DNA of 64,000 bases from Arenicola marina (taxonomy: Eukaryota > Annelida > Polychaeta > Arenicolidae). A model generated the notes under the pieces. It was not told where the DNA came from. It was given only the letters and a program-made list of their open reading frames with translations, and ran no database searches. The stretch lies in contig OZ025248.1 in assembly GCA_964019135.1 (NCBI GenBank), positions 10,113,574 through 10,177,573 on the forward strand, in the 5' to 3' direction. Shown here piece by piece: positions 1 to 63,321 of the stretch (the stretch's first letter is position 1; each line of letters begins with the position of its first letter). Both the position numbers and the translations under genes were made by a program.

Positions 1-15
1 ACGAGTGCCAGACAG
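1..15 (+). CDS. 3' tail of an EGF exon cut by the window start
   Basis: The first 15 bases match the end of every other exon in the array: the codons for Asn-Glu-Cys-Gln-Thr in the array frame plus the first base of the next Asp codon. A GTGAGT donor follows at 16-21. Confidence 0.9.
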
Positions 16-3000
16 GTGAGTTGGAGTTTGGTGGCAAATAAGACCTTTTCCGGCGTAGCGTGTAACCTTAGACAGCAATAACGATGGAATACCTCTCCCC
101 AGATGCACCATTTGCTCATCGTATATTGTTGATGAAGTAGAAAGCAAAGTTATGAATTGTAAATGTTCAGCTTGAGTGGATCTGAGAAGACGAATGACCC
201 TAGTGATTGGTGAAGTGACCGGAGTGGTGACGTGCAGTCATGAGCTAATGGTGATCATTAATTGTGTCTGGCTTCTGTTTTCAGATTTTGACGAATGCGC
301 CAGCAACCCATGCCAAAATGGTGGCACGTGTACTGACGCGGTGAATGGCTACTCATGTGCTTGTGTTGCTGGTTACGTAGACAACGAGTGCCAGACAGGT
401 GAGTTGGAGTATGGTGGCAAATAAGACATTTTCCGGCGTAGCGCGTAACCTTAGACAGCAATAACGATGGAATACCTCTCCCCAGATGCACCATTTGCTC
501 ATCGTATATTGTTGATGAAGTAGAAAGCGAAGTTATGAATTGTAAATGTTTAGCTTGAGTGCATCTGAGAAGACGAATGACCCTAGTGATTGGTGAATTG
601 ACCGGAGTAGTGACGTGCTGTCCTGAGCTAATGGTGATCATTAATTGTGTCTGGCTTGTGTTTTCAGATTTCGACGAATGCGCCAGCAACCCATGCCAAA
701 ATGGTGGCACGTGTACTGACGCGGTGAACGGCTACTCATGTGCTTGTGTTGCTGGTTACGTAGACAACGAGTGCCAGACAGGTGAGTTGGAGTTTGGTGG
801 CAAATAAGACCTTTTCCGGCGTAGCGTGTGACCTTAGACAGCAATAACGATGGAATACCTCTCCCCAGATGCACCATTGGCTCATCGTATATCGTTGATG
901 AAGTAGAAAGCAAAGTTATGAATTGTAAATGTTCAGCTTGAGTGCATCTGAGAAGACGAATGACCCTAGGGATTGCTGAAGTGACCGGAGTAGTGACGTG
1001 CTGTCATAAGCTAATGGCGATCATTAATTGTGTCTGGCTTGTGTTTTCAGATTTCGACGAATGCGCCAGCAACCCATGCCAAAATGGTGGCACGTGTACT
1101 GACGCGGTGAATGGCTACTCATGTGCTTGTGTTGCTGGTTACGTAGACAACGAGTGCCAGACAGGTGAGTTGGAGTTTGGTGGCAAATAAGACCTTTTCC
1201 GGCGTAGCGCGTGACCTTAGACAGCAATAACGAGGGAATACCTCTCCCCAGATGCACCATTTGCTCATCGTATATTGTTGATGAAGTAGAAAGCAAAGTT
1301 ATGAATTGTAAATGTTCAGCTTGAGTGCTTCTGAGAAGACGAATGACCCTAGTGATTGCTGAAGTGACCGGAGTAGTGACGTGTTGCCATGAGCTAATGG
1401 TGATCATTAATTGTGTCTGGCTTGTGTTTTCAGATTTCGACGAATGCGCCAGCAACCCATGCCAAAATGGTGGCACGTGTACTGACGCGGTGAACGGCTA
1501 CTCATGTGCTTGTGTTGCTGGTTACGTAGACAACGAGTGCCAGACAGGTGAGTTGGAGTTTGGTGGCAAATAAGACCTTTTCCGGCGTAGCGCGTGACCT
1601 TAGACATCAATAACGATGGAATACCTCTCCCCAGATGCACCATTTGCTCATCGTATATTGTTGATGAAGTAGAAAGCAAAGTTATGAATTGTAAATGTTC
1701 AGCTTGAGTGCATCTGACAAGACGAATGACCCTAGTGATTGCTGAAGTGACCGGAGTGGTGACGTGCAGTCATGAGCTAATGGTGATCATTAATTGTGTC
1801 TGGCTTCTGTTTTCAGATTTTGACGAATGCGCCAGCAACCCATGCCAAAATGGTGGCACGTGTACTGACACGGTGAATGGCTACTCATGTGCTTGTGTTG
1901 CTGGTTACGTAGACAACGAGTGCCAGACAGGTGAGTTGGAGTTTGGTGGCAAATAAGACCTTTTCCGGCGTAGCGCGTGACCTTAGACAGCAATAACGAT
2001 GGAATACCTCTCCCCAGATGCACCATTTGCTCATCGTATATCGTTGATGAAGTAGAAAGCAAAGTTATGAATTGTAAATGTTCAGCTTGAGTGCATCTGA
2101 GAAGACGAATGACCCTAGGGATTGCTGAAGTGACCGGAGTAGTGACGTGCTGTCATAAGCTAATGGCGATCATTAATTGTGTCTGGCTTGTGTTTTCAGA
2201 TTTCGACGAATGCGCCAGCAACCCATGCCAAAATGGTGGCACGTGTACTGACGCGGTGAATGGCTACTCATGTGCTTGTGTTGCTGGTTACGTAGACAAC
2301 GAGTGCCAGACAGGTGAGTTGGAGTTTGGTGGCAAATAAGACCTTTTCCGGCGTAGCGCGTGACCTTAGACAGCAATAACGATGGAATACCTCTCCCCAG
2401 ATGCACCATTTGCTCATCGTATATTGTTGATGAAGTAGAAAGCAAAGTTATGAATTGTAAATGTTCAGCTTGAGTGCATCTGAGAAGACGAATGACCCTA
2501 GTGATTGCTGAAGTGACCGGAGTAGTGACGTGTTGCCATGAGCTAATGGTGATCATTAATTGTGTCTGGCTTGTGTTTTCAGATTTCGACGAATGCGCCA
2601 GCAACCCATGCCAAAATGGTGGCACGTGTACTGACGCGGTGAACGGCTACTCATGTGCTTGTGTTGCTGGTTACGTAGACAACGAGTGCCAGACAGGTGA
2701 GTTGGAGTTTGGTGGCAAATAAGACCTTTTCCGGCGTAGCGCGTGACCTTAGACAGCAATAACGATGGAATACCTCTCCCCAGATGCACCATTTGCTCAT
2801 CGTATATTGTTGATGAAGTAGAAAGCAAAGTTATGAATTGTAAATGTTCAGCTTGAGTGCATCTGAGAAGACGAATGACCCTAGTGATTGCTGAAGCGAC
2901 CGGAGTAGTGACGTGTTGCCATGAGCTAATGGTGATCATTAATTGTGTCTGGCTTGTGTTTTCAGATTTCGACGAATGCGCCAGCAACCCATGCCAAAAT

Positions 3001-6000
3001 GGTGGCACGTGTACTGACGCGGTGAACGGCTACTCATGTGCTTGTGTTGCTGGTTACGTAGACAACGAGTGCCAGACAGGTGAGTTGGAGTTTGGTGGCA
3101 AATAAGACCTTTTCCGGCGTAGCGCGTGACCTTAGACAGCAATAACGATGGAATACCTCTCCCCAGATGCACCATTGGCTCATCGTATATCGTTGATGAA
3201 GTAGAAAGCAAAGTTATGAATTGTAAATGTTCAGCTTGAGTGCATCTGAGAAGACGAATGACCCTAGGGATTGCTGAAGTGACCGGAGTAGTGACGTGCT
3301 GTCATAAGCTAATGGCGATCATTAATTGTGTCTGGCTTGTGTTTTCAGATTTCGACGAATGCGCCAGCAACCCATGCCAAAATGGTGGCACGTGTACTGA
3401 CGCGGTGAATGGCTACTCATGTGCTTGTGTTGCTGGTTACGTAGACAACGAGTGCCAGACAGGTGAGTTGGAGTTTGGTGGCAAATAAGACCTTTTCCGG
3501 CGTAGCGCGTGACCTTAGACAGCAATAACGAGGGAATACCTCTCCCCAGATGCACCATTTGCTCATCGTATATTGTTGATGAAGTAGAAAGCAAAGTTAT
3601 GAATTGTAAATGTTCAGCTTGAGTGCATCTGAGAAGACGAATGACCCTAGTGATTGCTGAAGTGACCGGAGTAGTGACGTGCTGTCATGAGCTAATGGTG
3701 ATCATTAATTGTGTCTGGCTTGTGTTTTCAGATTTCGACGAATGCGCCAGCAACCCATGCCAAAATGGTGGCACGTGTACTGACGCGGTGAATGGCTACT
3801 CATGTGCTTGTGTTGCTGGTTACGTAGACAACGAGTGCCAGACAGGTGAGTTTGAGTTTGGTGTCAAATAAGACCTTTTCAGGCGTAGCGCGTGACCTTA
3901 GACAGCAATAACGATGGAATACCTCTCCCCAGATGCACCATTTACTCATCGTATATTGTTGATGAAGTAGAAAGCAAAGTTATGAATTGTAAATGTTCAG
4001 CTTGAGTGCATCTGAGAAGACGAATGACCCTAGTGATTGCTGAAGTGACCGGAGTAGTGACGTGTTGCCATGAGCTAATGGTGATCATTAATTGTGTCTG
4101 GCTTGTGTTTTCAGATTTCGACGAATGCGCCAGCAACCCATGCCAAAATGGTGGCACGTGTACTGACGCGGTGAACGGCTACTCATGTGCTTGTGTTGCT
4201 GGTTACGTAGACAACGAGTGCCAGACAGGTGAGTTGGAGTTTGGTGGCAAATAAGACCTTTTCCGGCGTAGCGCGTGACCTTAGACAGCAATAACGATGG
4301 AATACCTCTCCCCAGATGCACCATTTGCTCATCGTATATTGTTGATGAAGTAGAAAGCAAAGTTATGAATTGTAAATGTTCAGCTTGAGTGCATCTGAGA
4401 AGACGAATGACCCTAGTGATTGCTGAAGTGACCGGAGTAGTGACGTGTTGCCATGAGCTAATGGTGATCATTAATTGTGTCTGGCTTGTGTTTTCAGATT
4501 TCGACGAATGCGCCAGCAACCCATGCCAAAATGGTGGCACGTGTACTGACGCGGTGAACGGCTACTCATGTGCTTGTGTTGCTGGTTACGTAGACAACGA
4601 GTGCCAGACAGGTGAGTTGGAGTTTGGTGGCAAATAAGACCTTTTCCGGCGTAGCGCGTGACCTTAGACAGCAATAACGATGGAATACCTCTCCCCAGAT
4701 GCACAATTGGCTCATCGTATATCGTTGATGAAGTAGAAAGCAAAGTTATGAATTGTAAATGTTCAGCTTGAGTGGATCTGAGAAGACGAATGACCCTAGT
4801 GATTGGTGAAGTGACCGGAGTAGTGACGTCCAGTCATGAGCTAATGGTGATCATTAATTGTGTCTGGCTTGTGTTTTCAGATTTCGACGAATGCGCCAGC
4901 AACCCATGCCAAAATGGTGGCACGTGTACTGACACGGTGAATGGCTACTCATGTGCTTGTGTTGCTGGTTACGTAGACAACGAGTGCCAGACAGGTGAGT
5001 TGGAGTATGGTGGCAAATAAGACATTTTCCGGCGTAGCGCGTAACCTTAGACAGCAATAACGATGGAATACCTCTCCCCAGATGCACCATTTGCTCATCG
5101 TATATTGTTGATGAAGTAGAAAGCGAAGTTATGAATTGTAAATGTTTAGCTTGAGTGCATCTGAGAAGACGAATGACCCTAGTGATTGGTGAATTGACCG
5201 GAGTAGTGACGTGCTGTCATGAGCTAATGGTGATCATTAATTGTGTCTGGCTTGTTTTTTCAGATTTCGACGAATGCGCCAGCAACCCATGCCAAAATGG
5301 TGGCACGTGTACCGACGCGGTGAATGGCTACTCATGTGCTTGTGTTGCTGGTTACGTAGACAACGAGTGCCAGACAAGTGAGTTGGAGTTTGGTGGCAAA
5401 TAAGACCTTTTCCGGCGTAGCACGTGACCTTAGACAGCAATAACGATGGAATACCTCTCCCCAGGTGCACCATTTGCTCATCGTATATTGTTGATGAAGT
5501 AGAAAGCAAAGTTATGAATTGTAAATGTTCAGCTTGAGTGCATCTGAGAAGACGAATGACCCTAGTGATTGGTGAAGTGACCGGAGTAGTGACGTCCTGT
5601 TATGAGCTAATGGTGATCATTAATTGTGTCTGGCTTGTGTTTTCAGATTTCGACGAATGCGCCAGCAACCCATGCCAAAATGGTGGCACCTGTACTGACG
5701 CGGTGAATGGCTACTCATGTGCTTGTGTTGCTGGTTACGTAGACAACGAGTGCCAGACAGGTGAGTTGGAGTTTGGTGGCAAATAAGACCTTTTCCGGCG
5801 TAGCGTGTAACCTTAGACAGCAATAACGATGGAATACCTCTCCCCAGATGCACCATTTGCTCATCGTATATTGTTGATGAAGTAGAAAGCAAAGTTATGA
5901 ATTGTAAATGTTCAGCTTGAGTGGATCTGAGAAGACGAATGACCCTAGTGATTGGTGAAGTGACCGGAGTGGTGACGTGCAGTCATGAGCTAATGGTGAT

Positions 6001-9000
6001 CATTAATTGTGTCTGGCTTCTGTTTTCAGATTTTGACGAATGCGCCAGCAACCCATGCCAAAATGGTGGCACGTGTACTGACGCGGTGAATGGCTACTCA
6101 TGTGCTTGTGTTGCTGGTTACGTAGACAACGAGTGCCAGACAGGTGAGTTGGAGTATGGTGGCAAATAAGACATTTTCCGGCGTAGCGCGTAACCTTAGA
6201 CAGCAATAACGATGGAATACCTCTCCCCAGATGCACCATTTGCTCATCGTATATTGTTGATGAAGTAGAAAGCGAAGTTATGAATTGTAAATGTTTAGCT
6301 TGAGTGCATCTGAGAAGACGAATGACCCTAGTGATTGGTGAATTGACCGGAGTAGTGACGTGCTGTCCTGAGCTAATGGTGATCATTAATTGTGTCTGGC
6401 TTGTGTTTTCAGATTTCGACGAATGCGCCAGCAACCCATGCCAAAATGGTGGCACGTGTACTGACGCGGTGAACGGCTACTCATGTGCTTGTGTTGCTGG
6501 TTACGTAGACAACGAGTGCCAGACAGGTGAGTTGGAGTTTGGTGGCAAATAAGACCTTTTCCGGCGTAGCGTGTGACCTTAGACAGCAATAACGATGGAA
6601 TACCTCTCCCCAGATGCACCATTTGCTCATCGTATATCGTTGATGAAGTAGAAAGCAAAGTTATGAATTGTAAATGTTCAGCTTGAGTGCATCTGAGAAG
6701 ACGAATGACCCTAGGGATTGCTGAAGTGACCGGAGTAGTGACGTGCTGTCATAAGCTAATGGCGATCATTAATTGTGTCTGGCTTGTGTTTTCAGATTTC
6801 GACGAATGCGCCAGCAACCCATGCCAAAATGGTGGCACGTGTACTGACGCGGTGAATGGCTACTCATGTGCTTGTGTTGCTGGTTACGTAGACAACGAGT
6901 GCCAGACAGGTGAGTTGGAGTTTGGTGGCAAATAAGACCTTTTCCGGCGTAGCGCGTGACCTTAGACAGCAATAACGATGGAATACCTCTCCCCAGATGC
7001 ACCATTTGCTCATCGTATATTGTTGATGAAGTAGAAAGCAAAGTTATGAATTGTAAATGTTCAGCTTGAGTGCTTCTGAGAAGACGAATGACCCTAGTGA
7101 TTGCTGAAGTGACCGGAGTAGTGACGTGTTGCCATGAGCTAATGGTGATCATTAATTGTGTCTGGCTTGTGTTTTCAGATTTCGACGAATGCGCCAGCAA
7201 CCCATGCCAAAATGGTGGCACGTGTACTGACGCGGTGAACGGCTACTCATGTGCTTGTGTTGCTGGTTACGTAGACAACGAGTGCCAGACAGGTGAGTTG
7301 GAGTTTGGTGGCAAATAAGACCTTTTCCGGCGTAGCGCGTGACCTTAGACATCAATAACGATGGAATACCTCTCCCCAGATGCACCATTTGCTCATCGTA
7401 TATTGTTGATGAAGTAGAAAGCAAAGTTATGAATTGTAAATGTTCAGCTTGAGTGCATCTGACAAGACGAATGACCCTAGTGATTGCTGAAGTGACCGGA
7501 GTGGTGACGTGCAGTCATGAGCTAATGGTGATCATTAATTGTGTCTGGCTTCTGTTTTCAGATTTTGACGAATGCGCCAGCAACCCATGCCAAAATGGTG
7601 GCACGTGTACTGACACGGTGAATGGCTACTCATGTGCTTGTGTTGCTGGTTACGTAGACAACGAGTGCCAGACAGGTGAGTTGGAGTTTGGTGGCAAATA
7701 AGACCTTTTCCGGCGTAGCGCGTGACCTTAGACAGCAATAACGATGGAATACCTCTCCCCAGATGCACCATTTGCTCATCGTATATCGTTGATGAAGTAG
7801 AAAGCAAAGTTATGAATTGTAAATGTTCAGCTTGAGTGCATCTGAGAAGACGAATGACCCTAGGGATTGCTGAAGTGACCGGAGTAGTGACGTGCTGTCA
7901 TAAGCTAATGGCGATCATTAATTGTGTCTGGCTTGTGTTTTCAGATTTCGACGAATGCGCCAGCAACCCATGCCAAAATGGTGGCACGTGTACTGACGCG
8001 GTGAATGGCTACTCATGTGCTTGTGTTGCTGGTTACGTAGACAACGAGTGCCAGACAGGTGAGTTGGAGTTTGGTGGCAAATAAGACCTTTTCCGGCGTA
8101 GCGCGTGACCTTAGACAGCAATAACGATGGAATACCTCTCCCCAGATGCACCATTTGCTCATCGTATATTGTTGATGAAGTAGAAAGCAAAGTTATGAAT
8201 TGTAAATGTTCAGCTTGAGTGCATCTGAGAAGACGAATGACCCTAGTGATTGCTGAAGTGACCGGAGTAGTGACGTGTTGCCATGAGCTAATGGTGATCA
8301 TTAATTGTGTCTGGCTTGTGTTTTCAGATTTCGACGAATGCGCCAGCAACCCATGCCAAAATGGTGGCACGTGTACTGACGCGGTGAACGGCTACTCATG
8401 TGCTTGTGTTGCTGGTTACGTAGACAACGAGTGCCAGACAGGTGAGTTGGAGTTTGGTGGCAAATAAGACCTTTTCCGGCGTAGCGCGTGACCTTAGACA
8501 GCAATAACGATGGAATACCTCTCCCCAGATGCACCATTTGCTCATCGTATATTGTTGATGAAGTAGAAAGCAAAGTTATGAATTGTAAATGTTCAGCTTG
8601 AGTGCATCTGAGAAGACGAATGACCCTAGTGATTGCTGAAGCGACCGGAGTAGTGACGTGTTGCCATGAGCTAATGGTGATCATTAATTGTGTCTGGCTT
8701 GTGTTTTCAGATTTCGACGAATGCGCCAGCAACCCATGCCAAAATGGTGGCACGTGTACTGACGCGGTGAACGGCTACTCATGTGCTTGTGTTGCTGGTT
8801 ACGTAGACAACGAGTGCCAGACAGGTGAGTTGGAGTTTGGTGGCAAATAAGACCTTTTCCGGCGTAGCGCGTGACCTTAGACAGCAATAACGATGGAATA
8901 CCTCTCCCCAGATGCACCATTGGCTCATCGTATATCGTTGATGAAGTAGAAAGCAAAGTTATGAATTGTAAATGTTCAGCTTGAGTGCATCTGAGAAGAC

Positions 9001-48000: not shown

Positions 48001-51000
48001 GAAGTAGAAAGCAAAGTTATGAATTGTAAATGTTCAGCTTGAGTGCATCTGAGAAGACGAATGACCCTAGTGATTGCTGAAGTGACCGGAGTAGTGACGT
48101 GCTGTCATAAGCTAATGGCGATCATTAATTGTGTCTGGCTTGTGTTTTCAGATTTCGACGAATGCGCCAGCAACCCATGCCAAAATGGTGGCACGTGTAC
48201 TGACGCGGTGAATGGCTACTCATGTGCTTGTGTTGCTGGTTACGTAGACAACGAGTGCCAGACAGGTGAGTTGGAGTTTGGTGGCAAATAAGACCTTTTC
48301 CCGCGTAGCGCGTGACCGTAGACAGCAATAACGATGGAATACCTCTCCCCAGATGCACCATTTGCTCATCGTATATTGTTGATGAAGTAGAAAGCAAAGT
48401 TATGAATTGTAAATGTTCAGCTTGAGTGCATCTGAGAAGACGAATGACCCTAGTGATTGCTGAAGTGACCGGAGTAGTGACGTGTTGCCATGAGCTAATG
48501 GTGATCATTAATTGTGTCTGGCTTGTGTTTTCAGATTTCGACGAATGCGCCAGCAACCCATGCCAAAATGGTGGCACGTGTACTGACGCGGTGAACGGCT
48601 ACTCATGTGCTTGTGTTGCTGGTTACGTAGACAACGAGTGCCAGACAGGTGAGTTGGAGTTTGGTGGCAAATAAGACCTTTTCCGGCGTAGCGCGTGACC
48701 TTAGACAGCAATAACGATGGAATACCTCTCCCCAGATGCACCATTTGCTCATCGTATATTGTTGATGAAGTAGAAAGCAAAGTTATGAATTGTAAATGTT
48801 CAGCTTGAGTGCATCTGAGAAGACGAATGACCCTAGTGATTGCTGAAGTGACCGGAGTAGTGACGTGTTGCCATGAGCTAATGGTGATCATTAATTGTGT
48901 CTGGCTTGTGTTTTCAGATTTCGACGAATGCGCCAGCAACCCATGCCAAAATGGTGGCACGTGTACTGACGCGGTGAATGGCTACTCATGTGCTTGTGTT
49001 GCTGGTTACGTAGACAACGAGTGCCAGACAGGTGAGTTGGAGTTTGGTGGCAAATAAGACCTTTTCCGGCGTAGCGTGTAACCTTAGACAGCAATAACGA
49101 TGGAATACCTCTCCCCAGGTGCACCATTTGCTCATCGTATATTGTTGATGAAGTAGAAAGCAAAGTTATGAATTGTAAATGTTCAGCTTGAGTGCATCTG
49201 AGAAGACGAATGACCCTAGTGATTGGTGAAGTGACCGGAGTGGTGACGTGCAGTCATGAGCTAATGGTGATCATTAATTGTGTCTGGCTTGTGTTTTCAG
49301 ATTTTGACGAATGCGCCAGCAACCCATGCCAAAATGGTGGCACGTGTACTGACACGGTGAATGGCTACTCATGTGCTTGTGTTGCTGGTTACGTAGACAA
49401 CGAGTGCCAGACAGGTGAGTTGGAGTATGGTGGCAAATAAGACATTTTCCGGCGTAGCGCGTAACCTTAGACAGCAATAACGATGGAATACCTCTCCCCA
49501 GATGCACCATTTGCTCATCGTATATTGTTGATGAAGTAGAAAGCGAAGTTATGAATTGTAAATGTTTAGCTTGAGTGCATCTGAGAAGACGAATGACCCT
49601 AGTGATTGGTGAATTGACCGGAGTAGTGACGTGCTGTCCTGAGCTAATGGTGATCATTAATTGTGTCTGGCTTGTGTTTTCAGATTTCGACGAATGCGCC
49701 AGCAACCCATGCCAAAATGGTGGCACGTGTACTGACGCGGTGAACGGCTACTCATGTGCTTGTGTTGCTGGTTACGTAGACAACGAGTGCCAGACCGGTG
49801 AGTTGGAGTTTGGTGGCAAATAAGACCTTTTCCGGCGTAGCGCGTGACCTTAGACAGCAATAACGATGGAATACCTCTCCCCAGATGCACCATTTGCTCA
49901 TCGTATATCGTTGATGAAGTAGAAAGCAAAGTTATGAATTGTAAATGTTCAGCTTGAGTGCATCTGAGAAGACGAATGACCCTAGGGATTGCTGAAGTGA
50001 CCGGAGTAGTGACGTGCTGTCATAAGCTAATGGCGATCATTAATTGTGTCTGGCTTGTGTTTTCAGATTTCGACGAATGCGCCAGCAACCCATGCCAAAA
50101 TGGTGGCACGTGTACTGACGCGGTGAATGGCTACTCATGTGCTTGTGTTGCTGGTTACGTAGACAACGAGTGCCAGACAGGTGAGTTGGAGTTTGGTGTC
50201 AAATAGGACCTTTTCAGGCGTAGCGCGTGACCTTAGACAGCAATAACGATGGAATACCTCTCCCCAGATGCACCATTTACTCATCGTATATTGTTGATGA
50301 AGTAGAAAGCAAAGTTATGAATTGTAAATGTTCAGCTTGAGTGCATCTGAGAAGACGAATGACCCTAGTGATTGCTGAAGTGACCGGAGTAGTGACGTGT
50401 TGCCATGAGCTAATGGTGTTCATTAATTGTGTCTGGCTTGTGTTTTCAGATTTCGACGAATGCGCCAGCAACCCATGCCAAAATGGTGGCACGTGTACTG
50501 ACGCGGTGAATGGCTACTCATGTGCTTGTGTTGCTGGTTACGTAGACAACGAGTGCCAGACAGGTGAGTTGGAGTTTGGTGGCAAATAAGACCTTTTCCG
50601 GCGTAGCGCGTGACCTTAGACAGCAATAACGATGGAATACCTCTCCCCAGATGCACCATTTGCTCATCGTATATTGTTGATGAAGTAGAAAGCAAAGTTA
50701 TGAATTGTAAATGTTCAGCTTGAGTGCATCTGAGAAGACGAATGACCCTAGTGATTGCTGAAGTGACCGGAGTAGTGACGTGTTGCCATGAGCTAATGGT
50801 GATCATTAATTGTGTCTGGCTTGTGTTTTCAGATTTCGACGAATGCGCCAGCAACCCATGCCAAAATGGTGGCACGTGTACTGACGCGGTGAACGGCTAC
50901 TCATGTGCTTGTGTTGCTGGTTACGTAGACAACGAGTGCCAGACAGGTGAGTTGGAGTTTGGTGGCAAATAAGACCTTTTCCGGCGTAGCGCGTGACCTT

Positions 51001-54000
51001 AGACAGCAATAACGATGGAATACCTTTCTCCAGATGCACCATTGGCTCATCGTATATCGTTGATGAAGTAGAAAGCAAAGTTATGAATTGTAAATGTTCA
51101 GCTTGAGTGCATCTGAGAAGACGAATGACCCTAGGGATTGCTGAAGTGACCGGAGTAGTGACGTGCTGTCATAAGCTAATGGCGATCATTAATTGTGTCT
51201 GGCTTGTGTTTTCAGATTTCGACGAATGCGCCAGCAACCCATGCCAAAATGGTGGCACGTGTACTGACACGGTGAATGGCTACTCATGTGCTTGTGTTGC
51301 TGGTTACGTAGACAACGAGTGCCAGACAGGTGAGTTGGAGTATGGTGGCAAATAAGACATTTTCCGGCGTAGCGCGTAACCTTAGACAGCAATAACGATG
51401 GAATACCTCTCCCCAGATGCACCATTTGCTCATCGTATATTGTTGATGAAGTAGAAAGCGAAGTTATGAATTGTAAATGTTTAGCTTGAGTGCATCTGAG
51501 AAGACGAATGACCCTAGTGATTGCTGAAGTGACCGGAGTAGTGACGTGCTGTCATGAGCTAATGGTGATCATTAATTGTGTCTGGCTTGTGTTTTCAGAT
51601 TTCGACGAATGCGCCAGCAACCCATGCCAAAATGGTGGCACGTGTACTGACGCGGTGAACGGCTACTCATGTGCTTGTGTTGCTGGTTACGTAGACAACG
51701 AGTGCCAGACAGGTGAGTTGGAGTTTGGTGGCAAATAAGACCTTTTCCGGCGTAGCGCGTGACCTTAGACAGCAATAACGATGGAATACCTCTGCCCAGA
51801 TGCACCATTGGCTCATCGTATATCGTTGATGAAGTAGAAAGCAAAGTTATGAATTGTAAATGTTCAGCTTGAGTGCATCTGAGAAGACGAATGACCCTAG
51901 TGATTGCTGAAGTGACCGGAGTAGTGACGTGCTGTCATAAGCTAATGGCGATCATTAATTGTGTCTGGCTTGTGTTTTCAGATTTCGACGAATGCGCCAG
52001 CAACCCATGCCAAAATGGTGGCACGTGTACTGACGCGGTGAATGGCTACTCATGTGCTTGTGTGGCTGGTTACGTAGACAACGAGTGCCAGACAGGTGAG
52101 TTGGAGTTTGGTGGCAAATAAGACCTTTTCCCGCGTAGCGCGTGACCTTAGACAGCAATAACGATGGAATACCTCTCCCCAGATGCACCATTTGCTCATC
52201 GTATATTGTTGATGAACTAGAAAGCAAAGTTATGAATTGTAAATGTTCAGCTTGAGTGCATCTGAGAAGACGAATGACCCTAGTGATTGCTGAAGTGACT
52301 GGAGTAGTGACGTGTTGCCATGAGCTAATGGTGATCATTAATTGTGTCTGGCTTGTGTTTTCAGATTTCGACGAATGCGCCAGCAACCCATGCCAAAATG
52401 GTGGCACGTGTACTGACGCGGTGAACGGCTACTCATGTGCTTGTGTTGCTGGTTACGTAGACAACGAGTGCCAGACAGGTGAGTTGGAGTTTGGTGGCAA
52501 ATAAGGCCTTTTCCGGCGTAGCGCGTGACCTTAGACAGCAATAACGATGGAATACCTCTCCCCAGATGCACCATTTGCTCATCGTCTATCGTTGATGAAG
52601 TAGAAAGCAAAGTTATGAATTGTAAATGTTCAGCTTGAGTGCATCTGAGAAGACGAATGACCCTAGTGATTGCTGAAGTAACCGGAGTAGTGACGTGCTG
52701 TCATAAGCTAATGGCGATCATTAATTGTGTCTGGCTTGTGTGTTCAGATTTCGACGAATGCGCCAGCAACCCATGCCAAAATGGTGGCACGTGTACTGAC
52801 GCGGTGAATGGCTACTCATGTGCTTGTGTTGCTGGTTACGTAGACAACGAGTGCCAGACAGGTGAGTTGGAGTTTGGTGGCATATAAGACCTTTTCCGGC
52901 GTAGCGTGTGACCTTAGACAGCAATAACGATGGAATACCTCTCCCCAGATGCACCATTTGCTCATCGTATATTGTTGATGAAGTAGAAAGCAAAGTTATG
53001 AATTGTAAATGTTCAGCTTGAGTCGATCTGAGAAGACGAATGACCCTAGTGATTGGTGAAGTGAGCGGAGTAGTGACGTCCAGTCATGAGCTAATGGTGA
53101 TCATTAATTGTGTCTGGCTTGTGTTTTCAGATTTTGACGAATGCGCCAGCAACCCATGCCAAAATGGTGGCACGTGTACTGACACGGTGAACGGCTACTC
53201 ATGTGCTTGTGTTGCTGGTTACGTAGACAACGAGTGCCAGACAGGTGAGTTGGAGTATGGTGGCAAATAAGACATTTTCCGGCGTAGCGCGTAACCTTAG
53301 ACAGCAATAACGATGGAATACCTCTCCCCAGATGCACCATTTGCTCATCGTATATCGTTGATGAAGTAGAAAGCGAAGTTATGAATTGTAAATGTTTAGC
53401 TTGAGTGCATCTGAGAAGACGAATGACCCTAGTGATTTGTGAATTGACCGGAGTAGTGACGTGCTGTCATGAGCTAATGGTGATCATTAATTGTGTCTGG
53501 CTTGTGTTTTCAGATTTTGACGAATGCGCCAGCAACCCATGCCAAAATGGTGGCACGTGTACTGACGCGGTGAACGGCTACTCATGTGCTTGTGTTGCTG
53601 GTTACGTAGACAACGAGTGCCAGACAGGTGAGTTGGAGTTTGGTGGCAAATAAGACCTTTTCCCGCGTAGCGCGTGACCGTAGACAGCAATAACGATGGA
53701 ATACCTCTCCCCAGATGCACCATTTGCTCATCGTATATTGTTGATGAAGTAGAAAGCAAAGTTATGAATTGTAAATGTTCAGCTTGAGTGCATCTGAGAA
53801 GACGAATGACCCTAGTGATTGCTGAAGTGACCGGAGTAGTGACGTGTTGCCATGAGCTAATGGTGATCATTAATTGTGTCTGGCTTGTGTTTTCAGATTT
53901 CGACGAATGCGCCAGCAACCCATGCCAAAATGGTGGCACGTGTACTGACGCGGTGAACGGCTACTCATGTGCTTGTGTTGCTGGTTACGTAGACAACGAG

Positions 54001-57000
54001 TGCCAGACAGGTGAGTTGGAGTTTGGTGGCAAATAAGACCTTTTCCGGCGTAGCGCGTGACCTTAGACAGCAATAACGATGGAATACCTCTCCCCAGATG
54101 CACCATTTGCTCATCGTATATTGTTGATGAAGTAGAAAGCAAAGTTATGAATTGTAAATGTTCAGCTTGAGTGCATCTGAGAAGACGAATGACCCTAGTG
54201 ATTGCTGAAGTGACCGGAGTAGTGACGTGTTGCCATGAGCTAATGGTGATCATTAATTGTGTCTGGCTTGTGTTTTCAGATTTCGACGAATGCGCCAGCA
54301 ACCCATGCCAAAATGGTGGCACGTGTACTGACGCGGTGAATGGCTACTCATGTGCTTGCGTTGCTGGTTACGTAGACAACGAGTGCCAGACAGGTGAGTT
54401 GGAGTTTGGTGGCAAATAAGACCTTTTCCGGCGTAGCGTGTAACCTTAGACAGCAATAACGATGGAATACCTCTCCCCAGATGCACCATTTGCTCATCGT
54501 ATATTGTTGATGAAGTAGAAAGCAAAGTTATGAATTGTAAATGTTCAGCTTGAGTGGATCTGAGAAGACGAATGACCCTAGTGATTGGTGAAGTGACCGG
54601 AGTGGTGACGTGCAGTCATGAGCGAATGGTGATCATTAATTGTGTCTGGCTTCTGTTTTCAGATTTTGACGAATGCGCCAGCAACCCATGCCAAAATGGT
54701 GGCACGTGTACTGACGCGGTGAATGGCTACTCATGTGCTTGTGTTGCTGGTTACGTAGACAACGAGTGCCAGACAGGTGAGTTGGAGTATGGTGGCAAAT
54801 AAGACATTTTCCGGCGTAGCGCGTGACCTTAGACAGCAATAACGATGGAATACCTCTCCCCAGATGCACCATTTGCTCATCGTATATTGTTGATGAAGTA
54901 GAAAGCGAAGTTATGAATTGTAAATGTTTAGCTTGAGTGCATCTGAGAAGACGAATGACCCTAGTGATTGGTGAATTGACCGGAGTAGTGACGTGCTGTC
55001 CTGAGCTAATGGTGATCATTAATTGTGTCTGGCTTGTGTTTTCAGATTTCGACGAATGCGCCAGCAACCCATGCCAAAATGGTGGCACGTGTACTGACGC
55101 GGTGAACGGCTACTCATGTGCTTGTGTTGCTGGTTACGTAGACAACGAGTGCCAGACAGGTGAGTTGGAGTTTGGTGGCAAATAAGACCTTTTCCGGCGT
55201 AGCGCGTGACCTTAGACAGCAATAACGATGGAATACCTCTCTCCAGATGCACCATTGGCTCATCGTATATCGTTGATGAAGTAGAAAGCAAAGTTATGAA
55301 TTGTAAATGTTCAGCTTGAGTGCATCTGAGAAGACGAATGACCCTAGGGATTGCTGAAGTGACCGGAGTAGTGACGTGCTGTCATAAGCTAATGGCGATC
55401 ATTAATTGTGTCTGGCTTGTGTTTTCAGATTTCGACGAATGCGCCAGCAACCCATGCCAAAATGGTGGCACGTGTACTGACTCGGTGAATGGCTACTCAT
55501 GTGCTTGTGTTGCTGGTTACGTAGACAACGAGTGCCAGACAGGTGAGTTGGAGTTTGGTGGCAAATAAGACCTTTTCCGGCGTAGCGCGTGACCTTAGAC
55601 AGCAATAACGAGGGAATACCTCTCCCCAGATGCACCATTTGCTCATCGTATATTGTTGATGAAGTAGAAAGCAAAGTTATGAATTGTAAATGTTCAGCTT
55701 GAGTGCATCTGAGAAGACGAATGACCCTAGTGATTGCTGAAGTGACCGGAGTAGTGACGTGCTGTCATGAGCTAATGGTGATCATTAATTGTGTCTGCCT
55801 TGTGTTTTCAGATTTCGACGAATGCGCCAGCAACCCATGCCAAAATGGTGGCACGTGTACTGACGCGGTGAATGGCTACTCATGTGCTTGTGTTGCTGGT
55901 TACGTAGACAACGAGTGCCAGACAGGTGAGTTTGAGTTTGGTGTCAAATAAGACCTTTTCAGGCGTAGCGCGTGACCTTAGACAGCAATAACGATGGAAT
56001 ACCTCTCCCCAGATGCACCATTTGCTCATCGTATATTGTTGATGAAGTAGAAAGCAAAGTTATGAATTGTAAATGTTCAGCTTGTGTGCTTCTGAGAAGA
56101 CGAATGACCCTAGTGATTGCTGAAGTGACCGGAGTAGTGACGTGCTGTCATGAGCTAATGGTGATCATTAATTGTGTCTGGCTTGTGTTTTCAGATTTCG
56201 ACGAATGCGCCAGCAACCCATGCCAAAATGGTGGCACGTGTACTGACGCGGTGAATGGCTACTCATGTGCTTGTGTTGCTGGTTACGTAGACAACGAGTG
56301 CCAGACAGGTGAGTTTGAGTTTGGTGTCAAATGAGACCTTTTCAGGCGTAGCGCGTGACCTTAGACAGCAATAACGATGGAATACCTCTCCCCAGATGCA
56401 CCATTTGCTCATCGTATATTGTTGATGAAGTAGAAAGCAAAGTTATGAATTGTAAATGTTCAGCTTGAGTGCATCTGAGAAGACGAATGACCCTAGTGAT
56501 TGCTGAAGTGACCGGAGTAGTGACGTGTTGCCATGAGCTAATGGTGATCATTAATTGTGTCTGGCTTGTGTTTTCAGATTTCGACGAATGCGCCAGCAAC
56601 CCATGCCAAAATGGTGGCACGTGTACTGACGCGGTGAACGGCTACTCATGTGCTTGTGTTGCTGGTTACGTAGACAACGAGTGCCAGACAGGTGAGTTGG
56701 AGTTTGGTGGCAAATAAGACCTTTTCCGGCGTAGCGCGTGACCTTAGACATCAATAACGATGGAATACCTCTCCCCAGATGCACCATTTGCTCATCGTAT
56801 ATTGTTGATGAAGTAGAAAGCAAAGTTATGAATTGTAAATGTTCAGCTTGAGTGCATCTGAAAAGACGAATGACCCTAGTGATTGCTGAAGTGACCGGAG
56901 TAGTGACGTGTTGCCATGAGCTAATGGTGATCATTAATTGTGTCTGGCTTGTGTTTTCAGATTTCGACGAATGCGCCAGCAACCCATGCCAAAATGGTGG

Positions 57001-57074
57001 CACGTGTACTGACGCGGTGAATGGCTACTCATGTGCTTGTGTTGCTGGTTACGTAGACAACGAGTGCCAGACAG
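1..57074 (+). CDS. Exon array of a giant multi-EGF protein (149 complete calcium-binding EGF modules, partial at both ends)
   Basis: The spliced product would be a secreted or membrane-anchored extracellular rod of tandem calcium-binding EGF modules, 149 x 38 = 5662 residues in this window. Complete exons start at 285+383k (k=0-50), 19817+383k (0-28), 30923+383k (0-7), 33981+383k (0-16), 40491+383k (0-11) and 45088+383k (0-31); each is 114 bp. Each module has residues DFDEC (calcium site), CASNPC (O-glucose consensus CxSxPC), CQNGGTC (O-fucose consensus), [10 protein letters not shown] (beta-hydroxylation consensus) and cysteines at 5, 10, 16, 25, 27 and 36. Asp1 is split by the phase-1 intron. 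Eleven exons carry Thr for Ala19 (starts 1817, 4881, 7562, 22115, 33221, 41640, 43555, 47003, 49301, 51216, 53131). No signal peptide, membrane exon or other domain is visible, so the family (fibropellin-like, Notch-like or other) is open. A non-expressed satellite derived from such a gene is the alternative. Confidence 0.85.
285..398 (+). CDS. First complete EGF exon, reference module for the array
   Basis: This 114-bp exon is preceded by a TTTTCAG acceptor ending at 284 and followed by GTGAGT at 399. Both introns are phase 1, so the exon can be added, skipped or repeated without changing frame. It encodes 38 residues, counting the Asp shared with the previous exon. The six cysteines have EGF spacing (gaps of 4, 5, 8, 1 and 8 residues), which predicts disulfides 1-3, 2-4 and 5-6. 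The Asp-x-Asp-Glu-Cys start and the Asp/Tyr pair between cysteines 3 and 4 are the standard calcium-binding signature. The two-residue linker (Gln-Thr) before the next Asp is short, as in rigid fibrillin-type tandem modules. The O-GlcNAc consensus between cysteines 5 and 6 is not met, since Val-Asp replaces Ser/Thr-Gly. Confidence 0.9.
399..667 (+). other. Reference intron of the array (269 bp, phase 1)
   Basis: The intron runs from GTGAGT to TTTTCAG. Two branch-point candidates fit the yUnAy pattern: CTAAT about 36 bases and TTAAT about 23 bases before the acceptor. The polypyrimidine tract is weak (a TTGTGTTTT-type stretch). Read on from the exon, the frame hits a stop after about 11 residues (…GluLeuGluTyrGlyGlyLys, then TAA), so retention of any one intron would truncate the protein. 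Mid-intron, CTCTCCCCAG followed by ATG looks like a second acceptor. No RNA gene or inserted element is seen in this or other introns. Confidence 0.8.
5264..5377 (+). CDS. EGF exon with changed last base (AG to AA at the donor)
   Basis: This is a standard module except that the final exon base is A, giving ACAA before GTGAGT instead of ACAG. The base is also the first of the split codon at the head of the next module, so the next module would start Asn-Phe-Asp-Glu-Cys rather than Asp. Asn is tolerated at this calcium position in other cbEGF domains. Loss of the terminal G normally weakens a donor. The exon also has ACC for Thr17, a synonymous change. Confidence 0.8.
5746..10519 (+). repeat. 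Higher-order repeat A, copy 2
   Basis: This is the second copy of the block that begins at or before base 1. Parts of it were used again later: units around 5155-7700 recur at 19708-22254 (offset 14,553) and 30814-33360, and units around 7836-11914 recur at 33872-37950 (offset 26,036). Confidence 0.85.
11666..16500 (+). repeat. Nested 8-unit repeat inside the 29-unit block (offset 3,064 bp)
   Basis: Units from about 11666 to 13440 resemble units from about 14730 to 16500 in order. Both contain TGTGTTCAG acceptors, the CCCGAG variant (near 12354 and 15418) and the GATGGAGTAG variant (near 12771 and 15835). The copies differ in detail, so this exchange is older than the 11,106-bp duplication that carries it twice. 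Confidence 0.75.
19817..19930 (+). CDS. EGF exon with changed last base, second copy
   Basis: It carries the same terminal A and the same ACC Thr17 codon as the exon at 5264. It sits in the same local order of units, so it is a block-copied version and not an independent mutation. Confidence 0.8.
22382..33487 (+). repeat. 29-unit, 11,106-bp duplication, copy 2
   Basis: This is the direct tandem neighbour of the block at 11276. Matching continues 41 bases past the nominal end, to 33528, where G faces C at 22423. Translations of all three frames on both strands over the two copies show no difference that I could find. Confidence 0.9.
30923..31036 (+). CDS. EGF exon with changed last base, third copy
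   Basis: It is identical in its diagnostic changes to the exon at 19817, from which it is displaced by 11,106 bp. It belongs to the second copy of the large 29-unit duplication. Confidence 0.8.
33872..37950 (+). repeat. Re-used block of about 11 units from 7836-11914
   Basis: Unit order and markers (GAAGCGACC at 34675, TTTACTC near 35724, the final units with TGTGTTCAG) match 7836-11914 at an offset of 26,036 bp. That equals 68 units minus the 8 bases lost between them. Some bases differ, including Arg11 at 35542, so this copy is older than the 11,106-bp duplication. Confidence 0.75.
35513..35626 (+). CDS. EGF exon variant Gln11 to Arg
   Basis: Codon 35542-35544 is CGA, so the O-fucose loop reads Cys-Arg-Asn-Gly-Gly-Thr-Cys. 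The fucosylated Thr and its consensus remain. The matching exon 26,036 bp to the left (start 9477) has Gln, so the change arose after that block was copied. Confidence 0.8.
37319..39616 (+). repeat. Three-unit tandem duplication (2 x 1,149 bp)
   Basis: Units starting at 37319, 37702 and 38085 recur at 38468, 38851 and 39234. Each triplet carries the CCCCAGATACACC variant, the GGCATATAAG intron variant, the GATGAAATAG variant and the GAGTCGATC/GAATGATCC pair. Only a few bases, such as the Lys35 codon at 39444, separate the copies. Confidence 0.8.
39343..39456 (+). CDS. EGF exon variant Glu35 to Lys
   Basis: Codon 39444-39446 is AAG, placing Lys just before cysteine 6. The sister exon 1149 bp to the left (start 38194) has Glu, so this is a young private change and a charge reversal. 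Confidence 0.8.
40109..40222 (+). CDS. EGF exon variant Thr15 to Ala (lost O-fucose acceptor)
   Basis: Codon 40150-40152 is GCG, so the loop between cysteines 2 and 3 reads Gln-Asn-Gly-Gly-Ala. This is the only complete module in the array that I see without the Ser/Thr needed for POFUT1-type O-fucosylation. The following intron lacks one base (near 40287), so both changes mark this unit. Confidence 0.8.
40491..40604 (+). CDS. EGF exon variant Ala19 to Gly
   Basis: Codon 40544-40546 is GGG. Gly at this place (ThrAspGlyValAsnGly) is common in fibropellin and Notch EGF modules of other animals, so the change is probably mild. Confidence 0.8.
42680..53404 (+). repeat. Three-unit block present three times (starts near 42680, 46128, 52256)
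   Basis: The same trio of units (GTCTATCG intron variant, GGCATATAAG intron variant, GAGTCGATC with GACGTCCAG) appears near 42680-43828, 46128-47276 and 52256-53404, at offsets of 3,448 and 6,128 bp. Units with the GATTTGTGAATTG variant follow the second and third trio and also occur near 45362 and 45745. A further pair, 48426-49191 and 53788-54553, is offset by 5,362 bp. Confidence 0.75.
46237..46350 (+). CDS. EGF exon variant Asp3 to His (calcium site altered)
   Basis: Codon 46242-46244 is CAC, giving Asp-Phe-His-Glu-Cys at the module start. The third residue of the calcium motif is normally Asp or Asn, so this module probably binds calcium poorly. The related exons in the same block at 42789 and 52365 keep Asp. 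Confidence 0.8.
55429..55542 (+). CDS. EGF exon variant Ala19 to Ser
   Basis: Codon 55482-55484 is TCG. The change sits in the loop between cysteines 3 and 4, next to the hydroxylated Asp, and does not touch a key residue. Confidence 0.8.
56961..57074 (+). CDS. Last complete EGF exon before the assembly gap
   Basis: This is a standard module with a normal acceptor before 56961 and a GTGAGT donor at 57075. The intron after it runs 164 bases and is then lost in the run of N at 57239. The array therefore probably continues beyond the gap and is not shown to end here. Confidence 0.85.
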
Positions 57075-57238
57075 GTGAGTTGGAGTTTGGTGGCAAATAA
57101 GACCTTTTCCGGCGTAGCGTGTAACCTTAGACAGCAATAACGATGGAATACCTCTCCCCAGGTGCACCATTTGCTCATCGTATATTGTTGATGAAGTAGA
57201 AAGCAAAGTTATGAATTGTAAATGTTCAGCTTGAGTGC

Positions 57239-57438
57239 NNNNNNNNNNNNNNNNNNNNNNNNNNNNNNNNNNNNNNNNNNNNNNNNNNNNNNNNNNNNNN
57301 NNNNNNNNNNNNNNNNNNNNNNNNNNNNNNNNNNNNNNNNNNNNNNNNNNNNNNNNNNNNNNNNNNNNNNNNNNNNNNNNNNNNNNNNNNNNNNNNNNNN
57401 NNNNNNNNNNNNNNNNNNNNNNNNNNNNNNNNNNNNNN
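57239..57438. other. Assembly gap of 200 N
   Basis: Exactly 200 undetermined bases separate the EGF array from unrelated sequence. A round number suggests a placeholder, not a measured length. Repeats stand on both sides, which explains why the assembler stopped. Confidence 0.97.
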
Positions 57439-57520
57439 AGACCTAACATCTTACCCCTGCCCTGGGAAGTAGCCCCAGACCTAACATCTTACCCCTGCCC
57501 TGGGAAGTAGCCCCAGACCT
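57439..57520 (+). repeat. 38-bp tandem repeat cut by the gap
   Basis: Two full units (57439-57476 and 57477-57514) and six bases of a third are visible. The unit begins AGACCTAACATC and ends GTAGCCCC. The copies are identical, so a longer satellite may lie in the gap. Confidence 0.9.
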
Positions 57521-57965
57521 TAAAGTATGATGTCGAGTAAATCAATGCTATTTACACATCAGGACGTTTTGCGGTATAAAACACGACAGAATGACGCAGT
57601 ATATACACATGGAGTGAGCTTGTCTTGGAGGAGAATAATGTGTATGTTCGATCGAATACGGGACCGTTGTGCGGTAGCCAATGGGAAGCCGGGGCGCGTC
57701 TGACGTCATAGATTAAGGAACTGATGTACTCGAATTATTTCATAGCGTTCTCGGGAGTTGCGCAGATAATGTCCTAAATGATATGACGCGTCCACAAGTG
57801 GAAAAAAAATCGATAGCCCGTTAATTTTAAAACCCTAAGTATAGGCACCAATGTCAAACTGGTTTTCTTTCTCCCTTCACTTCCTTTTCGAGGCCGACGT
57901 ACACATATCGGCCCCAGTATTGATACAGCACGGCGTCGATCCTCCCACCCCACCCTTTCACACCG
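57521..57965. other. Unique sequence right of the gap, no gene seen
   Basis: This is mixed-composition, non-repetitive DNA with no exon-like EGF sequence and no long open frame. It holds a TATAAAA at 57575-57581 and the CCAAT/CRE pair listed separately. I see no terminal exon of the EGF gene here. Confidence 0.5.
57678..57708 (+). promoter_or_regulatory. CCAAT box plus palindromic CRE, possible promoter element
   Basis: AGCCAATGGG (CCAAT at 57678-57682) fits the NF-Y site well. A perfect CRE palindrome, TGACGTCA, lies at 57701-57708, with a GC-rich stretch between. This grouping is common just upstream of animal start sites. The TATA-like sequence at 57575 lies on the wrong side for a + strand promoter, and no following gene is identified. 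Confidence 0.4.
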
Positions 57966-58620
57966 CCCCCCCCCCCAAACACCGGGAACTCCCAAGGAAC
58001 CAATCCTCAAAGTCGTTACAAGGTCAAATCAGGGTCAACAAGAAGAACTGGCGTCTGGTGGAGCGTGAGAAAACGGTGGCCCGTCACTAAGTGGTACGTT
58101 GTGGGCTGTCCGTCTATCTATTCAGCCCGGCATGCGATCGGCCTGGCCGTCGATTCAGCCCGGGATGGATAGGAGGTTACAATTGTATTTACATCCATCC
58201 CCTTGTCTCTGAGTGGGGTTGGGTTTGGCGGTGGCCAGAGCCGTGTCAACACGAACCCCTCCCTCCTCGTCCGTCCCCTTTCTCCCTAGGTCCCCCTCTC
58301 CCCCTCTCTCGCTACCCCCCCCCCCCCGCCGTCACCGTGTCAACCACCCCCCGACTCCAGTAGCAGCCCGTGATTGCATTCAGGTCGTAATGGGATGGGA
58401 GTCAGACCGCTGGCTCACGCGCCCCTTGCCTCCCACCCGCGCACCCCTTGCCTCCCACCCGCGCACCCCTCGCCCCCCGCGTGCCCCTCGCCCTGGTTGT
58501 CTGGACACAATCCTCCCCGACCCCACCCCTAGCACCCCCTCATCCTCCCCCAGCTCCTTCTCCCACCGTCACCCCACCCTTATACAGGGACATTGTCTTT
58601 ACACAACGTGGGTCTCCTCC
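57966..58620 (+). repeat. C-rich low-complexity stretch
   Basis: Pure C runs occur at 57966-57976 (11) and 58315-58327 (13), among many CCCC and CCTCCC blocks. G-runs are nearly absent on this strand here. Open frames through it are proline-rich by composition and show no domain. Confidence 0.75.
58422..58475 (+). repeat. 22-bp tandem repeat, about 2.5 copies
   Basis: CCCCTTGCCTCCC with a CGCGCA tail starts at 58422 and again at 58444, and a degenerate part starts at 58466. Confidence 0.7.
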
Positions 58621-58645
58621 ACCCTTGTTATGGTATGTGTACCTT

Positions 58646-60727: not shown

Positions 60728-60751
60728 CTACTGTGGCCCATAGGTACAAAG

Positions 60752-63140: not shown

Positions 63141-63164
63141 CTTTGTACCTATGGGCCACAGTAG

Positions 63165-63321
63165 AACGCTGATGATGCCTTGTCTCTGTGGACATATGTC
63201 TCAGTGCTAATGCTTCCCAAATATCGCCCTTTTTTGTCTCTATCATACGCGGGGACATTACATACCCATATACGACCCTTTTCATTCTGGACCCCGTTGT
63301 TGTCATTTGCATTTTGAGCCC
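63165..63321. other. Short unique spacer between the element and the terminal minisatellite
   Basis: This is unique sequence with no gene recognised. Confidence 0.4.

What the first reader, a model, noticed from the sequence alone, without database searches (positions are those of the whole stretch)
1..57238. At least 149 near-identical EGF exons in one uninterrupted array
The sequence shows 149 complete 114-bp exons, all + strand, all with phase-1 GT-AG borders and a 383-bp period. Notch has about 36 EGF modules and fibrillin about 43 calcium-binding ones. The Drosophila Dumpy protein has around 300, but these are not near-identical exon copies. If transcribed as one gene, this window alone gives a rod of 5662 residues, roughly 0.4 micrometre long at fibrillin-like spacing (inference). 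It would be an unusual giant adhesive or matrix protein whose length is set by tandem DNA amplification.
Basis: partly seen in the sequence, partly recalled or inferred. Interest (0 to 1): 0.8.

Follow-up and report, generated by a model that had tools for sequence, protein, structure and literature searches.

The report
Giant gene of 631 EGF exons
An animal gene, probably from an annelid worm, carries hundreds of nearly identical copies of one small protein-coding exon, which look selected to stay functional and would make one of the longest chain-like cell-surface proteins known if they are all joined.

Summary
The window has exactly 149 complete 114-bp EGF exons, but it shows only a slice. 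In the 867-Mb assembly the same 383-bp unit runs from C1:10048739 to C1:10335329: 319 exons before the window's 200-N gap and, by spacing, 312 after a second gap. Of these 631 I read 427.

The 44.5-kb contig between the gaps is misplaced. It carries middle exons of an ELKS/CAST-type gene whose ends lie at C1:15.49-15.52 Mb, and the array breaks at unit position 278 and resumes at 279.

The exons look translated. All 427 lack stops and indels and keep six cysteines and AG/GT borders. Nonsynonymous variants are depleted 3-fold (0.24 per site; synonymous 0.81, intron 0.73; p=1e-9).

The array sits in a gene: an EGF exon upstream; downstream EGF-type exons, a NIDO exon, more EGF-type exons, TSP1 and a transmembrane exon. 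So a membrane-anchored giant (about 26,000 residues if every exon is used) is more likely than a secreted glue. No RNA evidence was available. Closest kinds: LPA KIV-2 coding VNTR, Dumpy, MUC4 (AMOP and VWD tested, not met).

The parts
1..57238 (+). Window slice of the 383-bp EGF exon array (149.5 units); the whole array runs C1:10048739-10335329, interrupted in the assembly by a misplaced contig
1..15 (+). 3' end of an array exon cut by the window start
   Evidence: it is completed upstream
285..398 (+). First complete 114-bp array exon in the window (phase 1/1), [38 protein letters not shown]
56961..57074 (+). Last (149th) complete array exon in the window
57075..57238 (+). First 164 bases of the intron of that unit (unit positions 115-278); the remaining 105 bases (positions 279-383) lie at C1:10215731-10215835 beyond the misplaced contig
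   Evidence: 278 + 105 = 383, 6 mismatches to the consensus unit
57239..57438 (.). 200-N scaffold gap
57439..64000 (.). Start of a 44,519-base contig that most likely does not belong here (part of an ELKS/CAST-type gene region whose other exons lie at C1:15.49-15.52 Mb)

Best explanation
The array is the expanded middle of one very large protein-coding gene in an animal, probably an annelid. A single phase-1, 114-bp exon for a calcium-binding, Notch-type EGF module, together with its 269-bp intron, was tandemly amplified to about 631 copies. Because the exon is 114 bp and phase 1 at both ends, any number of copies can be added, lost or skipped without breaking the frame, so unequal crossing-over homogenises and resizes the array while selection removes copies that damage the module (amplification and constraint: shown from sequence; the crossing-over mechanism: inferred). 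The array is flanked upstream by at least one more EGF exon (and perhaps a signal-peptide exon) and downstream by EGF-type exons, a NIDO exon, more EGF-type exons, a TSP1 exon and a transmembrane exon. The product would be a membrane-anchored surface protein whose outer part is a rod of up to 631 near-identical Ca2+-binding EGF modules carrying POFUT1- and POGLUT1-type sugar sites (23,978 residues from the array, about 26,000 in all; roughly 1.7 micrometres if straight at the recalled fibrillin-like 2.7 nm per module). I think it most likely works as a very long cell-surface brush or tether, in the way the repeat region of a transmembrane mucin does, with length set by copy number. That function is inference.
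For: Count and continuity: 427 of 631 exons were read and all are intact; all 27 minority-pattern hits in block 2 are in register to within 2 bases; 6 of 6 probes between 10280001 and 10330001 are array. Translation: over 423 units, site-allele variants are nonsynonymous 22 (0.243 per site), synonymous 19 (0.814), intron 196 (0.729), Fisher p=1e-9 for nonsynonymous against intron. With the intron's own mutation spectrum 65.6 nonsynonymous variants are expected and 22 seen (0 of 20,000 simulations as low), 9.8 cysteine losses expected and 0 seen, 3.6 stops expected and 0 seen, while 19 synonymous are seen against 18.9 expected. Synonymous sites vary like intron, so the constraint is on the protein. 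The donor hexamer has 0 variants at 6 sites. Gene context: upstream EGF exon C1:10047994-10048104; in the 3' chain 27 of 34 exon segments are phase 1/1; 18 of 25 EGF-type segments there pass a curated Pfam EGF-type cut-off; NIDO 27.2 bits against a cut-off of 25 and TSP1 E=1.4e-13; transmembrane exon with mean hydropathy 2.94 over 20 residues, joined to three preceding exons without a stop. A single repeat scores 41.8 bits for EGF against a cut-off of 21.5; closest solved relatives are Delta-like 1 and Notch1 (three joined copies).
Against: No RNA or protein evidence of any kind. The gene model has weak joints: the junction from the NIDO exon to the next gives a stop as I modelled it, the acceptor of the NIDO exon was not found, and five other segments are not phase 1 at the 5' side, so exons are missing or misplaced in the model. 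NIDO is only just above cut-off and partial, and the locus is not among the listed rows of the genome search for NIDO, a capped list whose weakest row scores 36.7 bits. 7 of 25 EGF-type segments in the 3' chain pass no cut-off. A single array repeat is just below the EGF_CA cut-off (25.2 against 27). The signal-peptide exon is one of two candidates in a scan of 50 kb, 18 kb upstream, with LINE-type ORFs in between. 15 of 22 nonsynonymous variants are singletons, which could mean recent variants not yet removed, base errors, or weaker constraint on single copies. Splicing more than 600 consecutive identical introns has no precedent I know of.
Confidence: 0.7

Rival explanations
1. The exons are coding and spliced, but transcripts use only a variable subset (exon skipping, or several start and end sites), so proteins are much shorter than the genomic array and length isoforms are the point.
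For: All 427 exons read are symmetric (114 bp, phase 1/1), so skipping is always in frame; in Dumpy all but one internal exon are divisible by 3 and blocks such as exons 35 to 50 are skipped (passages of PMC2930355).
Against: The donor hexamer is invariant (0 variants at 6 sites over 423 units) and all exons read look equally intact, with no sign of a preferred subset.
Confidence: 0.35
2. Secreted matrix or adhesive rod, with a fibrillin- or byssus-like role.
For: EGF modules occur in mussel plaque protein Pvfp-5 (structure match 7qab, E=3.6e-11) and in Macrostomum ap1 glue proteins (passages of PMC8621496).
Against: A transmembrane exon ends the 3' chain.
Confidence: 0.2
3. A satellite-like array of dead exons: an amplified piece of a gene that is no longer translated.
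For: 97% identity, a rigid 383-bp period and a 28-unit tandem duplication are what satellites show.
Against: Protein-level constraint: 22 nonsynonymous variants against 65.6 expected; 0 stops, 0 exon indels, 0 cysteine losses in 427 exons.
Confidence: 0.04
4. The array is real but its length is inflated or deflated by the assembly.
For: A 28-unit run is duplicated exactly 29 units apart (C1:10124965 and 10136071), and the scaffold around it holds one likely misplacement.
Against: 219 distinct units among 423; no run of 3 or more identical units is shared between the 318 units of block 1 and the first 81 of block 2, so that part of block 2 is not a copy of block 1.
Confidence: 0.25

Closest known systems
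[quoted passage not shown]
   Same: Highly homologous, intron-bearing coding units in tandem within one gene, resized by copy number; up to 70% of the protein (start of abstract and passages of PMC11462820).
   Different: Kringle, not EGF; two exons per 5.6-kb unit and 1 to about 40 units, against one exon per 383-bp unit and about 631 units.
Drosophila Dumpy
   Same: Giant extracellular protein with more than 300 EGF repeats; all but one internal exon divisible by 3 (passages of PMC2930355).
   Different: [quoted passage not shown] 78 coding exons for more than 300 EGF repeats, so not one module per exon (inference); about half as many EGF modules.
MUC4-type transmembrane mucin
   Same: A long tandem-repeat outer region, then NIDO, then EGF, then a transmembrane segment (passages of PMC5354666 and PMC9080433).
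   Different: The repeat is an EGF exon with an intron, not a Ser/Thr-rich stretch; AMOP not found at the locus and VWD not found.
Notch and Delta-like EGF arrays
   Same: Closest solved EGF sequences; same Ca2+-binding and O-fucose/O-glucose motifs.
   Different: Dozens of diverged modules, no near-identical array, no NIDO (recalled).

Membership tests
EGF-like domain (PF00008) | Six cysteines with EGF spacing; profile score above cut-off | tested here: met
   One repeat: EGF 41.8 bits (cut-off 21.5), hEGF 35.2 (cut-off 29.3); spacing 427 of 427 (the 0 of 427 was an error in my pattern)
Calcium-binding EGF (PF07645) | Profile score above cut-off | tested here: inconclusive
   One repeat 25.2 bits, below the cut-off of 27; three joined copies 49.1 bits, above it
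Calcium-binding EGF (PF07645) | Ca2+ ligands [DN]-x-[DN]-[EQ]-C and [DN]-x4-[FY] (pattern recalled) | tested here: met
   424 of 427 and 427 of 427
Notch-type glycosylated EGF | O-fucose site C2-x4-[ST]-C3 (passages of PMC11990869) | tested here: met
   425 of 427
Notch-type glycosylated EGF | O-glucose site C1-x-S-x-[PA]-C2 (pattern recalled) | tested here: met
   427 of 427
Notch-type glycosylated EGF | O-GlcNAc (EOGT) site (pattern recalled; found on some EGF modules only) | tested here: not met
   0 of 427
MUC4-type transmembrane mucin | NIDO domain | tested here: met
   27.2 bits against cut-off 25, partial (profile 100-152 of 186); not among the listed rows of the capped genome search
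MUC4-type transmembrane mucin | AMOP domain | tested here: not met
   No Pfam match to the segment; the genome search for PF03782 gives 7 matches at E up to 10, none at this locus
MUC4-type transmembrane mucin | VWD domain | tested here: not met
   No VWD match to the segments scanned; only C8-3_MUC4 at E 0.068 and 0.25, below cut-off
MUC4-type transmembrane mucin | Transmembrane segment near the C-terminus | tested here: met
   Hydropathy only; no topology predictor was available
Coding VNTR of intron-bearing units (LPA KIV-2 type) | Frame-neutral, near-identical coding units in tandem under protein-level constraint | tested here: met
Coding VNTR of intron-bearing units (LPA KIV-2 type) | Copy number varies between alleles or individuals | not testable with these tools
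   One assembly only

The most novel reading that the evidence does not exclude
A single gene with about 631 consecutive, near-identical EGF exons is transcribed and spliced whole, giving a membrane-anchored protein of about 26,000 residues, which would have the longest run of near-identical EGF modules of any animal protein I know of. Its length would be an evolvable, probably polymorphic trait set by satellite-like crossing-over under protein-level selection.
Probability: 0.5. Interest if true: 0.85.

Novelty: new variant of a known kind. Interest (0 to 1): 0.72.

Why it matters
It is an extreme natural case of a coding repeat in which DNA behaves like a satellite while the copies stay under protein-level selection. 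That makes two open questions testable in one locus: how far tandem exon amplification can stretch a protein, and how a cell splices hundreds of identical exons in order. It also shows how such loci mislead scaffolding: an ELKS/CAST-type gene appears split in this assembly because its contig was dropped into the array.

Tried and rejected
Rejected: 'natural 3' end at 57238' (unit positions 278 and 279 face each other across the two gaps; foreign gene in between). Rejected: block 2 as a haplotype copy of block 1 (318 units of block 1 against the first 81 of block 2). Rejected: dead satellite. Rejected: full MUC4 membership; I first read AMOP and VWD into the 3' exons by eye, but profile searches did not bear that out. 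Led nowhere: structure prediction of the NIDO exon (mean pLDDT 31.4, not used); the solved-structure search with it (one match at E=0.17, taken as chance); ARAGORN, which read the mitochondrial locus with the bacterial code (0 genes); Rfam on the window at gathering scores (0 matches); a first signal-peptide scan with too strict a pattern (0 candidates). An EGF-spacing pattern was mistyped (0 of 427); one search repeats it correctly (427 of 427). Paper searches for a gene with hundreds of near-identical EGF exons: I saw the listings and starts of abstracts of 15 of 70 papers, 7 of 7, 1 of 1, 7 of 7, 10 of 649 and 6 of 6, and no title or abstract start names such a gene. This is weak evidence of absence.

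Full report
CHECK OF THE OBSERVATION. Tandem Repeats Finder sees one array over window 1-57238: period 383, 149.5 copies, 97% matches, no indels. I found 149 complete 114-bp exons, first at 285-398, last at 56961-57074, all on the + strand. Every one has AG before and GT after, and reads without a stop when the last G of one exon is joined to the next. Within the window, 148 units with a full intron have mean pairwise identity 97.2% (exon 98.9%, intron 96.5%), and 85 of the 148 are distinct.

THE ARRAY IS LARGER THAN THE WINDOW. The window is G000:C1:10113574-10177573 of an 867-Mb, 762-contig assembly. The array begins at C1:10048739 and runs without interruption for 319 exons to the 200-N gap at C1:10170812-10171011, which is window 57239-57438. 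A 44,519-base contig follows, then a second 200-N gap, and then the same unit on the same strand from C1:10215731 to C1:10335329. Spacing gives 312 exons in this second block, of which I read 108 (82 + 13 + 13). The unread part is supported by 6 of 6 probes of 400 bases between 10280001 and 10330001 (the 14 probes from 10340001 on are not array) and by 27 of 27 block-2 hits of a minority-variant pattern in register to within 2 bases. That pattern has 51 hits in the whole genome, all forward and all in this array, with 0 for its reversed control. Total: 631 exons, 427 of them read; array length 241,672 bases.

THE GAP IS PROBABLY A SCAFFOLDING ERROR. The left block ends at unit position 278 and the right block starts at 279; together they make a 383-base unit with 6 mismatches to the consensus. 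A chance fit would be about 1 in 383. The genome search for the Cast (ELKS) family gives 25 matches. The seven best are four inside this contig, profile positions 285-612 (one with a stop codon read through), and three on the other strand at C1:15.52-15.49 Mb, positions 1-71, 128-213 and 710-758, which bracket them. The other 18, on other chromosomes, are weaker (E 3.6e-6 to 0.0096) and may be other coiled coils. So the contig most likely belongs about 5.3 Mb away, and window 57439-64000 has nothing to do with the array. I could not fetch the stretch where its home gap should be.

ARE THE EXONS TRANSLATED? Among 427 exons there are 21 distinct peptides, 373 of them identical. None has a stop or an indel, all keep six cysteines and EGF spacing. 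The 22 of 423 unit lengths that differ from 383 therefore differ in the intron. Over 423 full units I counted each site-allele once: 22 nonsynonymous (0.243 per site), 19 synonymous (0.814), 196 intron (0.729); nonsynonymous against intron p=1e-9, synonymous against intron p=0.56. Drawing exon variants from the intron's own mutation spectrum predicts 65.6 nonsynonymous, 9.8 cysteine losses, 3.6 stops and 18.9 synonymous; observed are 22, 0, 0 and 19. The window alone shows the same: 8 nonsynonymous, 9 synonymous, 97 intron, p=2.6e-6. The splice donor hexamer has no variant at its 6 sites. Against this reading: 15 of the 22 nonsynonymous variants are singletons, compared with 63 of 196 in introns (p=0.0017) and 7 of 19 synonymous (p=0.063). 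I read that as young variants not yet removed, but base errors would look alike. Units are related by duplication, so these p-values treat variants as more independent than they are.

IS IT AN ASSEMBLY EXPANSION? 219 of 423 units are distinct; no run of three or more identical units is shared between the 318 units of block 1 and the first 81 of block 2. Block 1 does hold a 28-unit run repeated 29 units further on (C1:10124965 and 10136071), either a recent duplication or a local error. At the 5' edge 12 of the 14 units of length 384 in block 1 lie between C1:10049888 and 10057942, and the last exon, C1:10335330-10335443, is array-like in its first half only (by eye). Distinct edges around a homogeneous middle are what unequal crossing-over leaves (inference).

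THE GENE AROUND IT. One EGF exon lies 0.6 kb upstream, C1:10047994-10048104 (EGF 39.3 bits). A scan of 50 kb upstream for a signal-peptide exon with a phase-1 donor gave 2 candidates; the better one is C1:10029864-10029918, MATLLLVLLCYSIVTTVE. Downstream I modelled 34 exon segments (1,843 core residues) between C1:10335330 and 10365505, with borders chosen by a simple splice score that was not forced to any phase; 27 of 34 are phase 1/1. In order: 6 EGF-type segments (4 pass a curated Pfam EGF-type cut-off), a NIDO exon (PF06119, 27.2 bits, cut-off 25), 3 segments with no family above cut-off, 19 EGF-type segments (14 pass), a TSP1 exon (E=1.4e-13), and four last segments that join without a stop and end in a hydrophobic helix. 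Weak joints: the NIDO acceptor was not found, the next junction gives a stop as modelled, and the TSP1-to-next junction is out of phase. A search with the NIDO exon's protein finds only itself in the genome at E up to 0.001; a search with the NIDO family finds 156 matches, and this weak one is not among the rows listed.

WHAT EACH MODULE LOOKS LIKE. One repeat matches EGF well above cut-off (41.8 bits, cut-off 21.5) but is just below the EGF_CA cut-off (25.2, cut-off 27); three joined copies pass both. The closest solved structures by sequence are Delta-like 1 and Notch1. Calcium ligands are kept in 424 and 427 of 427, the O-fucose site in 425, the O-glucose site in 427, the O-GlcNAc site in 0. 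The O-fucose consensus is from PMC11990869 (passages); the other patterns are recalled.

ORGANISM. No name is given. On mitochondrial contig C762 I read by eye nd3, nd2, cox1, a short stretch that looks like tRNA-Asn, then cox2, in the invertebrate code. As recalled, that order is typical of annelids. ARAGORN, with the bacterial code, did not find the tRNA, so this is a lead only.

MECHANISM. Shown: amplification, homogeneity, frame-neutral units, protein-level constraint, and in-phase neighbouring exons. Inferred: transcription and full splicing, resizing by unequal crossing-over, calcium-stiffened rod, membrane anchoring, and a brush or tether role. If all exons are used the array gives 23,978 residues and the protein about 26,000. 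At a recalled 2.7 nm per module the straight rod would be about 1.7 micrometres.

COMPARISON. By architecture of the DNA the nearest is the LPA KIV-2 coding VNTR (1 to about 40 units of 5.6 kb; start of abstract and passages of PMC11462820). By size and content it is Dumpy (more than 300 EGF repeats, 78 coding exons; passages of PMC2930355). By order of domains it recalls MUC4 (passages of PMC5354666 and PMC9080433), but two of MUC4's defining domains were tested and not met, so I do not file it there. Giant repetitive glue proteins of flatworms exist (Mlig-ap2, 14,794 residues, with repeats of 255 residues; passages of PMC8621496). I call the present gene a new variant of a known kind: an intron-bearing coding VNTR, at a scale I have not seen described.

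VERDICT. Real, much larger than reported, very probably coding; function unproven; worth long-read RNA.

Noticed in passing
window 57439-64000; C1:10171012-10215530: A 44.5-kb contig holding middle exons of an ELKS/CAST-type gene is scaffolded into the EGF array; the gene's other exons lie at C1:15.489-15.521 Mb on the other strand.
   Followed up: partly
window 60753-61259 and 62707-63139: Two arrays of a 19-20 bp repeat, AGCTGCGCCCTGCAAATCAG and its reverse complement, face each other about 1.4 kb apart, like a fold-back element.
   Followed up: no
C1:10179965-10189524: About 181 copies of a 53-bp tandem repeat, 94% match, inside the misplaced contig; it may be why the contig was hard to place.
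   Followed up: no
C1:70.15-70.48 Mb, C1:71.39-71.48 Mb, C11:30.0 Mb, C9:25.1-25.4 Mb (L058 is a 1.2-kb sample of the first): Other clustered EGF exons (capped list). In L058 four exons of a different EGF module stand 329-338 bp apart and are 90-97% identical, against 98.9% in the 383-bp array.
   Followed up: partly
C6:24.2-31.9 Mb: More than a hundred of the listed matches to NIDO (exon by exon, capped list) lie here, mostly in regular clusters, suggesting a large tandem family of NIDO genes.
   Followed up: no
C1:10036150-10041622 (+) and C1:10046581-10047882 (-): Open frames that look like LINE endonuclease and reverse transcriptase, upstream of the first EGF exon (named by eye).
   Followed up: no
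C1:10020197-10025808: A tandem repeat with long open frames in several frames (RATELSPPRQPCEAGPQSFHRPANLARQGH...), probably non-coding.
   Followed up: no
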